Source of the DNA: Nitrospinota bacterium
Lineage (GTDB): Bacteria; Nitrospinota; Nitrospinia; JACRGO01
NCBI GenBank assembly: GCA_016212295.1
Contig: JACRGO010000035.1
Location: forward strand, 1-19,940
Direction of reading: 5' to 3'
Length of the DNA stretch: 19,940 bases
The stretch's first letter is position 1, and each line of letters starts with the position of its first letter. A program made the position numbers and the translations under genes. The notes beneath the pieces are model-generated. The model did not search any database. It was not told the DNA's origin and worked only from the letters and a program-made list of their open reading frames with translations. Positions 11,427 through 15,455 of the stretch are shown piece after piece.

Positions 11427-13937
11427 ATGAGAAAAAAATATTTCCTGCCTGTGCTATGTCTCCTCTCCATCTTCATCCTTCATGAAAGCAATGCAAGCGC
11501 GGTGGAAACCGGGTCCCTTATGGTTATAGCCCAGGACACGGATGGAAAACCGGTCAATGCCCCCATTGAGGTAAAGGGGGAGCAAAAGGGGAAAGGGACT
11601 TTGATCCTCACCCTCCCGAAAAAAAAATACACGGTCCTTTTCGGGAAAATGAAGGGGTACGCGCTGAAGACCCCGAAGACAGGCAGGCAGATCGCTTCAG
11701 TGGAGCCGGGCAAAACCACGATCGTGACCGGAATTTACGAATCCGAGTCCCAGCCAGGCATGGTCCACATAAAAAAAGGCAGCCAGGATTTTTATATAGA
11801 TGAATACGAATACCCCAATAAGGCGTCCAAGGAGCCCACGGTCAAGGTGGACTGGGGCCTGGCGAAGGCCCTTTGCTCCGACCTTGGCAAAAGGCTTTGC
11901 ACAAAGGAAGAATGGTCCGCCGCTTGCGGTGGGCCAAAAGGCTTCGCCTACCCTTACGGCAGGATTTATGAAGGCCCCAAATGCAACGGCGCGGACGCGG
12001 ACAGGGGCGTTGCTGTCCCGTCCGGGACCATGAAAGACTGCGTGAGCGAATACGGGGCCTTTGACATGAGCGGGAACGTTTGGGAATGGACCGGGACCCC
12101 TGAATCCGGAGTGGGCCTTATGGGAGGAAACTGGTCCTCGCTTGAAACGGGCATGACATGCTCCTTCTTCGAGAAGGAGGATCCCGCTTACAAGGATGAC
12201 ACCATAGGCTTCCGGTGCTGCAAGACGGTTGAGGAGGTGGATAAGACCCCTCCCGTGACCACGGCCTCTCCTGGAGGCGGGACGTACGCCTCCGCCCAAT
12301 CGGTTACCTTGTCCTGTTCGGACAACGGCGGCTCCGGCTGCGCCGCGACCTGGTACACCACGGACGGGTCCGGCCCGACCAATCATTCCTCTCGCTATTC
12401 CTCTCCTATCCCCATCTCCTCCACAACCACGCTTAAATTTTTAAGCATGGACAAGATGGAGAATATCGAACCGGTGAAGACGGAGAAGTACACGATTTCC
12501 ATCGCTCCTGCCGATACCACCGCCCCAACAACCACGGCCTCTCCCGGAGGGGGGACATACGCCTCAGCTAAATCAGTAACCTTGTCATGTAAGGACAATG
12601 GCGGTTCCGGGTGCAAAGCGACCTATTACACAACAAACGGGACCATCCCCACCGCGGCCACGGGCGCGGTCTATTCCTCCGCCATCTCCATTTCCGCCAC
12701 AACCACACTAAAGTTTTTCAGCGTGGACAAGGCCAGGAACGCCGAGTCAGTGAAGACGGAGAAGTACACTATTTCCATCGCTCCTGCCGATACCACCGCC
12801 CCAACAACCACGGCCTCTCCCGGAGGCGGGACGTACAACTCCGCTAAATCTGTTACCCTGTCCTGTTCAGACAACGGCGGTTCCGGGTGCAAGGCGACAT
12901 ATTATACGTCCGACGGGTCCGATCCGACCGAGTCATCTCCGGTCTATTCCTCCGCCATCACCATTTCCGCCACAACCACACTAAAGTTTTTCAGCGTGGA
13001 CAAGGCCAGGAACGCCGAGTCAGTGAAGACGGAGAAGTACACTATTTCCATCGCTCCTACCGATACCACCGCCCCAACAACCACGGCCTCTCCCGGAGGC
13101 GGGACGTACAACTCCGCCCAATCTGTTACCCTGTCCTGCGCGGACAATGGCGGCTCCGGGTGCTACGTGACTTATTACACGACTGACGGGAGCGACCCTG
13201 ACACCTCTTCCCTTGTCTACGCCTCCCCCATCTCCATTTCCGCCACCACAACTTTAAAATTTTTCAGCATTGACAAGGCCGGGAACCGGGAGACCGTGAA
13301 GACGAAGGAGTATGTGATCAAAAAGAAGAGCGGGGGCGGAGGCGGCGGGACAACAGTAACCGACATTGACGGCAACGCTTATAATACAGTCACCATCGGC
13401 ACACAGAGATGGATGAAAGAGAATCTTAAAGTGACCAAATACCGCAATGGGGAAGCCATACCCACTACCCGTGATATTTCAGCCGAAACCTCGCCAAAAT
13501 ACCAGTGGGCATATAATGGCAACGAAAGCAATGTGTCTACTTACGGGCGGTTATATACCTGGTATGCGGCAACTGACAGCAGGGGCGTATGTCCTGCAGG
13601 CTGGCACTTGCCCACCGATGCTGAATGGACAACGCTTATGGATTATCTGGGAGGCGAAAGCGCGGCAGGCGGCAAGATGAAAGAAAGCGGAACAACTCAT
13701 TGGAATAGCCCCAATACATCCGCGGACAACAGCAGCGGTTTCACAGCGCTTCCGGGTGGTTACCGCTACTACGACGGCTCATTCTACCTCTTCGGCTACT
13801 ACGGTAACTGGTGGTCGGCTACGGAGTTCAGTTCTACAGACGCGTGGGACCGTCTCCTGTACTACGACTACGGCTACGTGAGCCGTTACTACAGCAGTAA
13901 GAACTACGGGTTCAGCGTTCGCTGTGTCGGGGATTGA
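11427..13937 (+). CDS. Exported multidomain protein with FGE-sulfatase and Fibrobacter-type paralogous domains; candidate DGR target
   Basis: An 836-residue protein with a signal peptide (hydrophobic 6-18, cleavage likely after about Ala25). Residues about 30-105 form a PEGA/carboxypeptidase-regulatory-like beta domain. Residues about 112-268 form an FGE-sulfatase (C-type-lectin fold) domain with the DMSGNVWEWTG motif and the GFRCCK end. Four chitobiase/hexosaminidase C-terminal-type repeats (each starting TTASPGGGTY, starts near 271, 363, 455 and 546, period about 92) follow. A Gly-rich linker leads to a TIGR02145 'Fibrobacter succinogenes major paralogous' domain (about 643-836) with GVCPAGWHLPTDAEWTTL and the end GFSVRC. 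AAAGGAG (11413-11419) is well spaced from the ATG. The 3' end has the codon pattern of a DGR variable region. I infer a surface or secreted ligand-binding protein. It ends at a clear intrinsic terminator. Confidence 0.92.
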   Translation: MRKKYFLPVLCLLSIFILHESNASAVETGSLMVIAQDTDGKPVNAPIEVKGEQKGKGTLILTLPKKKYTVLFGKMKGYALKTPKTGRQIASVEPGKTTIVTGIYESESQPGMVHIKKGSQDFYIDEYEYPNKASKEPTVKVDWGLAKALCSDLGKRLCTKEEWSAACGGPKGFAYPYGRIYEGPKCNGADADRGVAVPSGTMKDCVSEYGAFDMSGNVWEWTGTPESGVGLMGGNWSSLETGMTCSFFEKEDPAYKDDTIGFRCCKTVEEVDKTPPVTTASPGGGTYASAQSVTLSCSDNGGSGCAATWYTTDGSGPTNHSSRYSSPIPISSTTTLKFLSMDKMENIEPVKTEKYTISIAPADTTAPTTTASPGGGTYASAKSVTLSCKDNGGSGCKATYYTTNGTIPTAATGAVYSSAISISATTTLKFFSVDKARNAESVKTEKYTISIAPADTTAPTTTASPGGGTYNSAKSVTLSCSDNGGSGCKATYYTSDGSDPTESSPVYSSAITISATTTLKFFSVDKARNAESVKTEKYTISIAPTDTTAPTTTASPGGGTYNSAQSVTLSCADNGGSGCYVTYYTTDGSDPDTSSLVYASPISISATTTLKFFSIDKAGNRETVKTKEYVIKKKSGGGGGGTTVTDIDGNAYNTVTIGTQRWMKENLKVTKYRNGEAIPTTRDISAETSPKYQWAYNGNESNVSTYGRLYTWYAATDSRGVCPAGWHLPTDAEWTTLMDYLGGESAAGGKMKESGTTHWNSPNTSADNSSGFTALPGGYRYYDGSFYLFGYYGNWWSATEFSSTDAWDRLLYYDYGYVSRYYSSKNYGFSVRCVGD
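13755..13937 (+). other. Candidate variable region (VR) of a diversity-generating retroelement
   Basis: The last ~60 codons of the exported protein gene have a fixed skeleton (GGYR…GSF…G..GNWWSATE…AW.R.L…V.R…K..GFSVRC) filled with Tyr, Asp, Gly, Ser, Phe, Leu and Asn. From 13761 to 13934, 34 of 58 codons are NNC. All 13 Tyr are TAC, while upstream in the same domain 5 of 8 Tyr are TAT. Nearly every variable codon can be reached from AAC by changing only the As, which is the signature of adenine-directed mutagenic homing. Its position at the extreme 3' end of a C-type-lectin-fold gene is the DGR norm. No template repeat or reverse transcriptase is visible in this window, so this rests on pattern alone. 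Confidence 0.6.
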
Positions 13938-14039: not shown

Positions 14040-14070
14040 ATGGGGCGAAGCCCCATCGAATTTTTTTTTT
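14040..14070 (+). terminator. Rho-independent terminator after the 836-residue protein
   Basis: A perfect 7-bp stem ATGGGGC/GCCCCAT (14040-14046 and 14050-14056) with a GAA loop is followed by CGAA and ten Ts (14061-14070). It lies about 100 bases past the stop codon. An 11-G homopolymer (14028-14038) sits directly in front of it. Confidence 0.85.
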
Positions 14071-14171: not shown

Positions 14172-14230
14172 TGAGATGGCACATGAGCGAAAAAGAGGAC
14201 GCGCTGACCAAGACCTATGATCTTATGTTC

Positions 14231-14424
14231 CGCTCGTTACGGATTTGCAATCCGTAACGCGGCGCCACACGCTCGTCGCGGATTTGCAATCTGTAACGCG
14301 GCGCCACACGCTCGTCGCGGATTTGCAATCCGCGATGCTATACCTTCGGGATTTGCAATCCCGATCCACGGATTACAAATCCGGGCGGAAGATGCGTTAC
14401 AGGTTACAAACCTGTAACGAGCAG
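14231..14424. repeat. REP-like palindrome array, left of the RAYT gene
   Basis: A string of imperfect palindromes with TTTGCAATC- or TTACAAATC-type centres: CGTTACGGATTTGCAATCCG, CGTCGCGGATTTGCAATC (twice), TCGGGATTTGCAATCCCGA, GGATTACAAATCC and ACAGGTTACAAACCTGT. The array opens with GCTCGTTAC and closes with GTAACGAGC, so it has terminal inverted repeats itself. Near-identical arrays lie right of the transposase. More degenerate GAGC/GCAACGAG pieces continue to about 14515. Confidence 0.85.
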
Positions 14425-14525
14425 TGCGGTAAATCCGCAACGAGCGGTACGAGCAAGAAATTGGATTGCAACGAACAATGCGATAGCATTAACGAGTATT
14501 AACCAGCAACGAGGGTTATAGCCCC

Positions 14526-15068
14526 ATGCGGTCCCGTTATAAAATCATAGAGGCCCCTGAAGGCTGCAATATAATCTTCGCCACCTCCACCATAGTGGAC
14601 TGGACCCCGCTCCTTTTTAAGGACGATCTTCTGGACATTATTTTACAAAGCCTTAAATTCTGCCAAAAGGAAAAAGGATTGGAAATATATGGGTACGTTA
14701 TAATGCCGAACCATTTTCACCTGCTGGCCGGACATAAGACGCGCAAGGCCATGCCAGGCATAATCAGGGACATGAAAAAACACACCGCCAAGGAGATTAT
14801 CAAGTATCTCAAGGGCTTGGGAACTTATGGAGAAATGCCCTGGATAAGGCCCTTTCATGCGGAAAAGCCAAGCATGGTTTGGCAGCCGGGTTACCATCCC
14901 CAGGCGGTTTTCAGCCAACCCGTGTTTTCGGAAAAGCTGAAATATATCCATGGCAATCCAGTAAAGCAAGGGTTTGTGGAAAGGCCCGAGCATTGGAAAT
15001 ATTCGAGCGCCAGGAATTATATTCTTGACGACCATTCATTGGTTGTTTTGGACACTGAGCGGCTGTAG
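14526..15068 (+). CDS. REP-associated tyrosine transposase (RAYT, Y1 HUH family)
   Basis: A 180-residue single-strand transposase of the IS200/IS605-like Y1 superfamily. The HUH motif MPNHFHLL carries His63 and His65. The catalytic tyrosine is probably Tyr140 in KLKYIHGNPVKQGF, the family's usual 'Y-I-x-x-NPV' position. RAYTs are thought to mobilise the REP/BIME palindromes that flank them, and here both sides of the gene carry closely related palindrome arrays (14231-14424 and 15082-15411), which fits a REPtron-type unit. The start lacks a strong Shine-Dalgarno (GAGG about 12 bases upstream). The frame is intact with no missing catalytic residue, so it may still be active. Confidence 0.92.
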   Translation: MRSRYKIIEAPEGCNIIFATSTIVDWTPLLFKDDLLDIILQSLKFCQKEKGLEIYGYVIMPNHFHLLAGHKTRKAMPGIIRDMKKHTAKEIIKYLKGLGTYGEMPWIRPFHAEKPSMVWQPGYHPQAVFSQPVFSEKLKYIHGNPVKQGFVERPEHWKYSSARNYILDDHSLVVLDTERL

Positions 15069-15081
15069 TGGAACGGATTCC

Positions 15082-15411
15082 CGCTCGTTACGGGTTTGCA
15101 ATCCGTAACGCGACACCACACGCTCGTCGCGGATTTGCAATCCGCGATGCTATACCTTCGGGATTTGCAATCCCGATCCACGGATTACAAATCCGGGCGG
15201 AAGATGCGTTACAGGTTACAAACCTGTAACGAGCAGTAAACGCGACACCACACGCTCGTCGCGGATTTGCAATCCGCGATGCTATACCTTCGGGATTTGC
15301 AATCCCGATCCACGGATTACAAATCCGGGCGGAAGATGCGTTACAGGTTGCAAACCTGTAACGAGCAGTAATCTGAAATCTAAACGGTTACAAACCTGTA
15401 ACGAGCAGTAA
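15082..15411. repeat. REP-like palindrome array, right of the RAYT gene, with 132-bp tandem duplication
   Basis: The same palindromes as on the left. Two almost identical 132-bp units lie head to tail (15109-15240 and 15241-15372); I see only two differences (TTACAA versus TTGCAA near the end, and the last base). A partial third end (GGTTACAAACCTGTAACGAG, 15386-15405) follows. The outer end before 15109 repeats the GCTCGTTAC terminus. Confidence 0.88.
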
Positions 15412-15455
15412 CTATCAAGCTTGACAGACTACGGCCTTCGCTAATATATTTAATT

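What the first reader, a model, noticed from the sequence alone, without database searches (positions are those of the whole stretch)
13755..13937. Probable DGR variable region in an exported C-type-lectin-fold protein, with the retroelement not nearby
Seen: the final 58 sense codons from 13761 are 34 NNC, all 13 Tyr are TAC (5 of 8 Tyr are TAT just upstream in the same domain), and the changeable residues (Y, D, G, S, F, L, N) are those reachable from AAC by altering only A. They alternate with an invariant skeleton (GGYR, GSF, GNWWSATE, AW, GFSVRC). Known: DGR reverse transcriptases mutate template adenines and overwrite the 3' end of genes with a C-type-lectin fold, and AAC-rich templates are typical. 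Inferred: this gene is hypervariable and served in trans, because no RT or template repeat is in the window.
Basis: partly seen in the sequence, partly recalled or inferred. Interest (0 to 1): 0.8.

Follow-up and report, generated by a model that had tools for sequence, protein, structure and literature searches.

The report
Hypermutated lectin gene beside broken retroelement
The end of this exported bacterial protein gene was rewritten by a known kind of targeted mutation machine (a diversity-generating retroelement), and right next to it lies the broken stub of that machine's accessory gene, while its copying enzyme and template were not found in the draft genome.

Summary
The region is a real DGR variable region (VR) at the end of a FISUMP domain (PF09603), a known DGR target family with a C-type-lectin-like fold. 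The decisive test is the paralogue on contig C60. Outside the VR the two genes differ as ordinary paralogues do (codon positions 1/2/3: 12/12/38 in 123 codons). Inside it they differ 16/15/2 in 57 codons (p = 6e-8), so both were overwritten from one template and mutated at its adenines. Of 33 differing sites, 30 fall on adenines of a template from a complete FISUMP-DGR cassette in Bacteroidales. A hairpin at 14040-14056, present once in this genome and once in its congener, is followed at 14183 by the first 15 codons of an avd gene. The congener's intact DGR has the same hairpin-avd order. Here avd is cut off by a REP array and a RAYT transposase. No DGR reverse transcriptase or template is in the 90.5% complete draft; the single RT hit is a group II intron. 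Service in trans from an unassembled DGR and orphaning are both open; I lean to orphaned. New member of a known kind.

The parts
11427..13937 (+). DGR target gene, 836 aa: signal-peptide-like N-terminus, FGE-sulfatase domain (aa 131-265), four CHB_HEX_C_1 / OmpL47-type repeats, C-terminal FISUMP domain
   Evidence: the signal peptide is read by eye
13389..13928 (+). FISUMP domain (PF09603, full length), predicted C-type-lectin-like fold
   Evidence: E 5e-48; AlphaFold mean pLDDT 95.9; structural matches include Lcl C-terminal domain, FGE and the DGR protein TaqVP
13755..13928 (+). DGR variable region (VR)
   Evidence: third-position silence plus position 1-2 hypervariation against the C60 paralogue; 30 of 33 differing sites on adenines of a real FISUMP template
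13908..13928 (+). A-poor invariant 3' end of the VR (GGGTTCAGCGTTCGCTGTGTC), inferred IMH (initiation of mutagenic homing)
   Evidence: identical in C211, C60 and the C156:1198-1237 fragment; role inferred by analogy with BPP-1
14040..14056 (+). Hairpin ATGGGGC-GAA-GCCCCAT followed by TCGA and a T run, inferred DGR target hairpin and/or terminator
   Evidence: occurs once in G000 (here) and once in G001, between a DGR VR and avd; similar hairpin followed by TCGA and T's in L055 and L099
14183..14227 (+). Truncated avd: first 15 codons MSEKEDALTKTYDLM
   Evidence: 14 of 16 aa identical to the Avd N-terminus of G001, DNA 36/45 identical, E 3e-5; only avd piece in G000; G020 Avd begins MSDKEDALTKTYDLM
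14228..14525 (.). REP-type palindromic repeat array that interrupts avd
   Evidence: sequence; the same palindrome recurs after the transposase
14526..15068 (+). Y1 / IS200-like transposase of the RAYT type between the REP arrays
   Evidence: PF01797 E 3e-8; repeats on both sides
15070..15420 (.). Second REP-type repeat array

Best explanation
Positions 13755-13928 are the variable region of a diversity-generating retroelement target. An error-prone DGR reverse transcriptase copied a template RNA of the type G-G-Y-R-N-N-N-G-T-F-N-N-I-G-N-N-G-N-W-W-S-A-T-E, mutated its adenines, and the cDNA replaced the 3' end of this gene and of at least one paralogue (C60). The product is an exported protein with a C-type-lectin-like tip whose binding residues are randomised. 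The gene was the core target of a local cassette in the order target, hairpin, avd (then RT and TR); avd is now cut after codon 15 by a REP/RAYT insertion. RT and TR are either deleted, leaving an orphaned and frozen VR, or in the roughly 10% of the genome not assembled, in which case diversification goes on in trans. Shown: VR rewriting from a shared A-mutated template, fold, hairpin, avd stub. Inferred: order of events, loss of the RT, ligand-binding role.
For: Codon-position contrast of window gene and C60 gene: core 12/12/38 in 123 codons, VR 16/15/2 in 57, p = 6.3e-8. 30 of 33 differing VR sites sit on adenines of the TR of the Bacteroidales FISUMP cassettes L055 and L099 (p = 1.6e-11), and in L099 the cassette's own TR-to-VR changes are 33 of 33 at A. 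My template, built from C211 and C60 before those cassettes were fetched, matches their TR almost residue for residue. A third, truncated VR end at C156:1198-1237 shares the skeleton with other letters at the predicted A sites. Hairpin unique to this place and to the congener's DGR. avd stub. C-type-lectin-like fold. FISUMP is a reported DGR target domain (PMC4159848; PMC8934634).
Against: No DGR RT, intact avd or TR in 237 contigs. The avd stub is only 15-16 codons and its genome-wide E-value alone is weak (0.09); it rests on position, hairpin and DNA match together. The class's own DGR templates are of FGE-sulfatase type, not FISUMP, so the FISUMP template that wrote this VR is inferred, not seen. 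The hairpin has a 3-nt loop and lies about 110 bp from the VR, unlike the 4-nt GRNA loops at 4-34 bp of phage DGRs (PMC3240598).
Confidence: 0.88

Rival explanations
1. Sub-case 1, active in trans: an intact DGR with a FISUMP template sits in the unassembled tenth of the genome and still diversifies this gene and C60.
For: Only 2 third-position differences in 57 VR codons against 38 in 123 core codons, so the last rewriting is recent compared with the age of the paralogues. The congener's DGR contig begins inside a VR, showing that such repeats can break assemblies. Remote targets are documented in T. denticola.
Against: No RT, TR or further avd fragment, even partial, on any contig. The local avd is broken.
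Confidence: 0.35
2. Sub-case 2, orphaned VR: RT and TR were lost together with most of avd by REP/RAYT-associated rearrangement and the VR is now frozen.
For: avd cut exactly at a REP array; the rest of avd is nowhere in the assembly. T. denticola isolates keep target genes after loss of the core DGR (PMC4891356). Older FISUMP paralogues C133, C58, C156 and C119 show decayed VR skeletons.
Against: The C211 and C60 skeletons are still nearly intact; the draft is incomplete.
Confidence: 0.58
3. No DGR: gene conversion between paralogues plus strong diversifying selection on a lectin surface.
For: FISUMP homologues in general are more variable at positions 1-2 in this region.
Against: It needs about 31 changes at positions 1-2 against 2 at third positions after conversion, confined to sites that are A in real templates and without the transition bias of ordinary substitution (7 AG and 5 CT of 33).
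Confidence: 0.04
4. Codon bias only (NNC preference near the 3' end).
For: NNC is raised elsewhere in the gene (42%).
Against: Codon bias does not explain hypervariable positions 1-2 between paralogues with an identical skeleton.
Confidence: 0.01

Closest known systems
FISUMP-targeting DGR cassettes of Bacteroidales (L055 DJVY01000159, L099 JAQIDF010000343)
   Same: Same target domain, collinear VR skeleton, hairpin then avd after the target, TR with the same AAC/AAT pattern
   Different: These have intact avd, TR and RT next to the target; the window has only an avd stub
FGE-sulfatase-type DGR of the same genus (G001:C67) and class (G020, G013, G025)
   Same: Nearly identical Avd N-terminus in G001 and G020; identical hairpin bar one loop base in G001; order VR, hairpin, avd
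   Different: Their templates encode an FGE-type lectin end (RGGSWN..GFRCA), not FISUMP
Remnant and remote DGR targets of Treponema denticola (PMC4891356)
   Same: Target genes that persist where the core RT and TR are absent
   Different: Different organism and target genes; here the accessory gene stub and the interrupting element are visible
Bordetella phage BPP-1 DGR (mtd-avd-TR-brt)
   Same: Mechanism, C-type-lectin target, hairpin after the VR
   Different: Phage; complete; 4-nt GRNA loop close to the VR

Membership tests
Diversity-generating retroelement (DGR) target | VR differences confined to template adenines | tested here: met
   30 of 33 C211/C60 differences on adenines of heterologous TRs; control TR99 to VR99 33 of 33. 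The own TR is not available.
Diversity-generating retroelement (DGR) target | VR homogenised with another VR or TR at non-A sites | tested here: met
   2 third-position differences in 57 VR codons against 38 in 123 core codons
Diversity-generating retroelement (DGR) target | VR at the 3' end of a gene with a C-type-lectin (or Ig) fold | tested here: met
   FISUMP, PF09603; AF2 model pLDDT 95.9; VIA-align Z 8.4 Lcl, 7.2 TaqVP. These Z-scores are middling; family membership by profile is strong.
Complete DGR cassette | DGR-type reverse transcriptase in the genome | tested here: inconclusive
   Only RVT_1 match is a group II intron maturase; draft 90.5% complete
Complete DGR cassette | Template repeat in the genome | tested here: inconclusive
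   Not found with the VR or the reconstructed TR; draft incomplete
Complete DGR cassette | Intact accessory gene (avd) next to the target | tested here: not met
   Only 15 codons at 14183-14227, then a REP array
Complete DGR cassette | Hairpin downstream of the VR | tested here: met
   14040-14056, unique in G000, shared with the G001 DGR; loop and distance differ from phage examples
Active DGR | Adenine-site polymorphism in the population | not testable with these tools
   No reads available

The most novel reading that the evidence does not exclude
A hybrid system: an FGE-lineage DGR (avd and hairpin of the class's own type) took up a FISUMP template and now, from an unassembled locus, diversifies several FISUMP receptors in trans after its original home was broken by a REP/RAYT insertion.
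Probability: 0.2. Interest if true: 0.55.

Novelty: new member of a known kind. Interest (0 to 1): 0.42.

Why it matters
It shows that a DGR variable region can be proven without its template, by the contrast of codon positions between paralogues. Surveys that require RT and VR on one contig state that they would not detect remote targets (PMC8144416); orphaned ones would escape the same requirement. It also gives a case of DGR decay by REP/RAYT insertion.

Tried and rejected
The RT of contig C142 was rejected as a DGR RT: it is closest to group II maturases and is flanked by sequence that looks like intron RNA. TR searches with the VR and with two reconstructed templates found only VRs. G001 has no FISUMP gene. 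FGE-type genes of G000 (C213, C235) look VR-like but their differences from the G001 and G020 templates are not clearly adenine-limited (p 0.003-0.02). Viral contigs encode FISUMP relatives, but none of the stretches held has a DGR RT. Structure searches gave only middling scores and are used as support, not proof. Literature searches for FISUMP with hypervariable or DGR by that name found nothing; under the name Fib_succ_major it is a reported DGR target.

Full report
What is there. The window is contig C211 of a 3.74 Mb draft genome (237 contigs, 90.5% complete). The flagged stretch is the 3' end of an 836-aa gene (11427-13937) with a signal-peptide-like start, an FGE-sulfatase domain, four CHB_HEX_C_1 repeats and a C-terminal FISUMP domain (PF09603 / TIGR02145).

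Decisive test. The genome holds five more FISUMP genes with a full C-terminus and one cut short. Against the C60 gene, the window gene differs in the conserved part of the domain as ordinary paralogues do: 12, 12 and 38 differences at codon positions 1, 2 and 3 in 123 codons. In the last 57 codons the pattern inverts to 16, 15 and 2 (p = 6e-8). Ordinary selection is very unlikely to give this. It is expected if both ends were overwritten by copies of one template whose adenines, mostly in AAC codons, were randomised. A 5'-truncated third copy at C156:1198-1237 carries the same skeleton with other letters at the variable sites.

Independent template. From C211 and C60 I wrote a template with A at each variable site (used). 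Later, two Bacteroidales contigs (L055, L099) proved to hold complete cassettes: FISUMP target, avd, TR, DGR reverse transcriptase. The L055 TR reads GGNRNNNGTFNNIGNNGNWWSATENNATNAWNRNMNNNNSNVNRNNNNKELGFSVRC, collinear with the window VR and nearly what I had written. In L099 all 33 TR-VR differences are at template A. Of the 33 C211/C60 differences, 30 fall on A of these templates (p = 1.6e-11). Part of that agreement could reflect shared structural constraint on which residues vary; the third-position silence is free of this objection. A second natural experiment is L043 (Nitrospiria): two tandem FISUMP domains with no difference in 121 core codons and 37 in the VR.

Neighbourhood. The same-genus genome G001 has a DGR (VR end, hairpin, avd, RT, TR). 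Its RT matches BPP-1 Brt at 35% identity (E 3e-53). Its hairpin ATGGGGCGNAGCCCCAT occurs once in G001, between VR and avd, and once in our genome, at 14040-14056 behind the VR. At 14183-14227 follows MSEKEDALTKTYDLM, the start of avd (G001 MNEKEDALTKTYDLM; G020 MSDKEDALTKTYDLM), and then a REP-type palindrome array, a RAYT-type transposase and more repeats. So the window gene sat at the head of a DGR cassette that is now broken.

What is missing. The single RVT_1 match in the genome is a group II intron maturase. No TR, and no further avd piece, is in the assembly. The missing tenth of the genome leaves two readings: orphaned VR (about 0.6) or service in trans from an unassembled DGR (about 0.35-0.4). 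The class's own DGRs have FGE-type templates, so the FISUMP template that wrote this VR has not been seen. A hybrid cassette is possible but unproven.

Fold and function. AlphaFold2 models the domain with mean pLDDT 95.9. The structural neighbours include the Lcl C-terminal domain, formylglycine-generating enzymes, C-type lectins and the DGR variable protein TaqVP (Z up to 8, middling). A role as an exported, diversified binding protein is inferred from the family.

Known or new. Fib_succ_major is a reported DGR target (PMC4159848, PMC8934634), and T. denticola isolates with target genes but no core DGR are described (PMC4891356). This is a new member of a known kind, with an unusually clear proof and a visible route of decay.

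Noticed in passing
L043 9269-10543 (Nitrospiria, CAKKRA010000356): One ORF with two tandem FISUMP domains: 121 core codons identical at DNA level, VRs differing at 37 sites.
   Followed up: partly
L048 10634-11047 (Nitrospiria, CAKKRA010000163): DGR RT directly behind a FISUMP gene, 81% identical over 122 aa to a Bacteroidales DGR RT, suggesting transfer of the cassette between phyla; cut by the contig end.
   Followed up: partly
G000:C156:1198-1237 (L006): Isolated 40-bp 3' end of a FISUMP VR among REP-like repeats, without the rest of the gene.
   Followed up: partly
G000:C142, L018 1520-3400: Group II intron with maturase, near a gene for an FGE-type protein.
   Followed up: partly
L055 1119-1150, L099 about 2950, G001:C67:78-107, window 14040-14070: Shared hairpin with a GAA/GGA triloop, then TCGA and usually a T run, between VR stop and avd in DGRs of different phyla; a possible bacterial form of the DGR target hairpin.
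   Followed up: partly
G000:C213 and C235 (L181, L183): FGE-type genes whose ends resemble VRs of the class's FGE-type DGR templates, with weak adenine bias.
   Followed up: partly
L044/L045, L145/L147, L141/L161: Near-identical FISUMP pairs in which the VR is also unchanged or nearly so, suggesting no recent diversification there.
   Followed up: no
G000:C236:8376-8745 (L016): FISUMP gene broken by a stop at HLPTAR close to the contig end.
   Followed up: no
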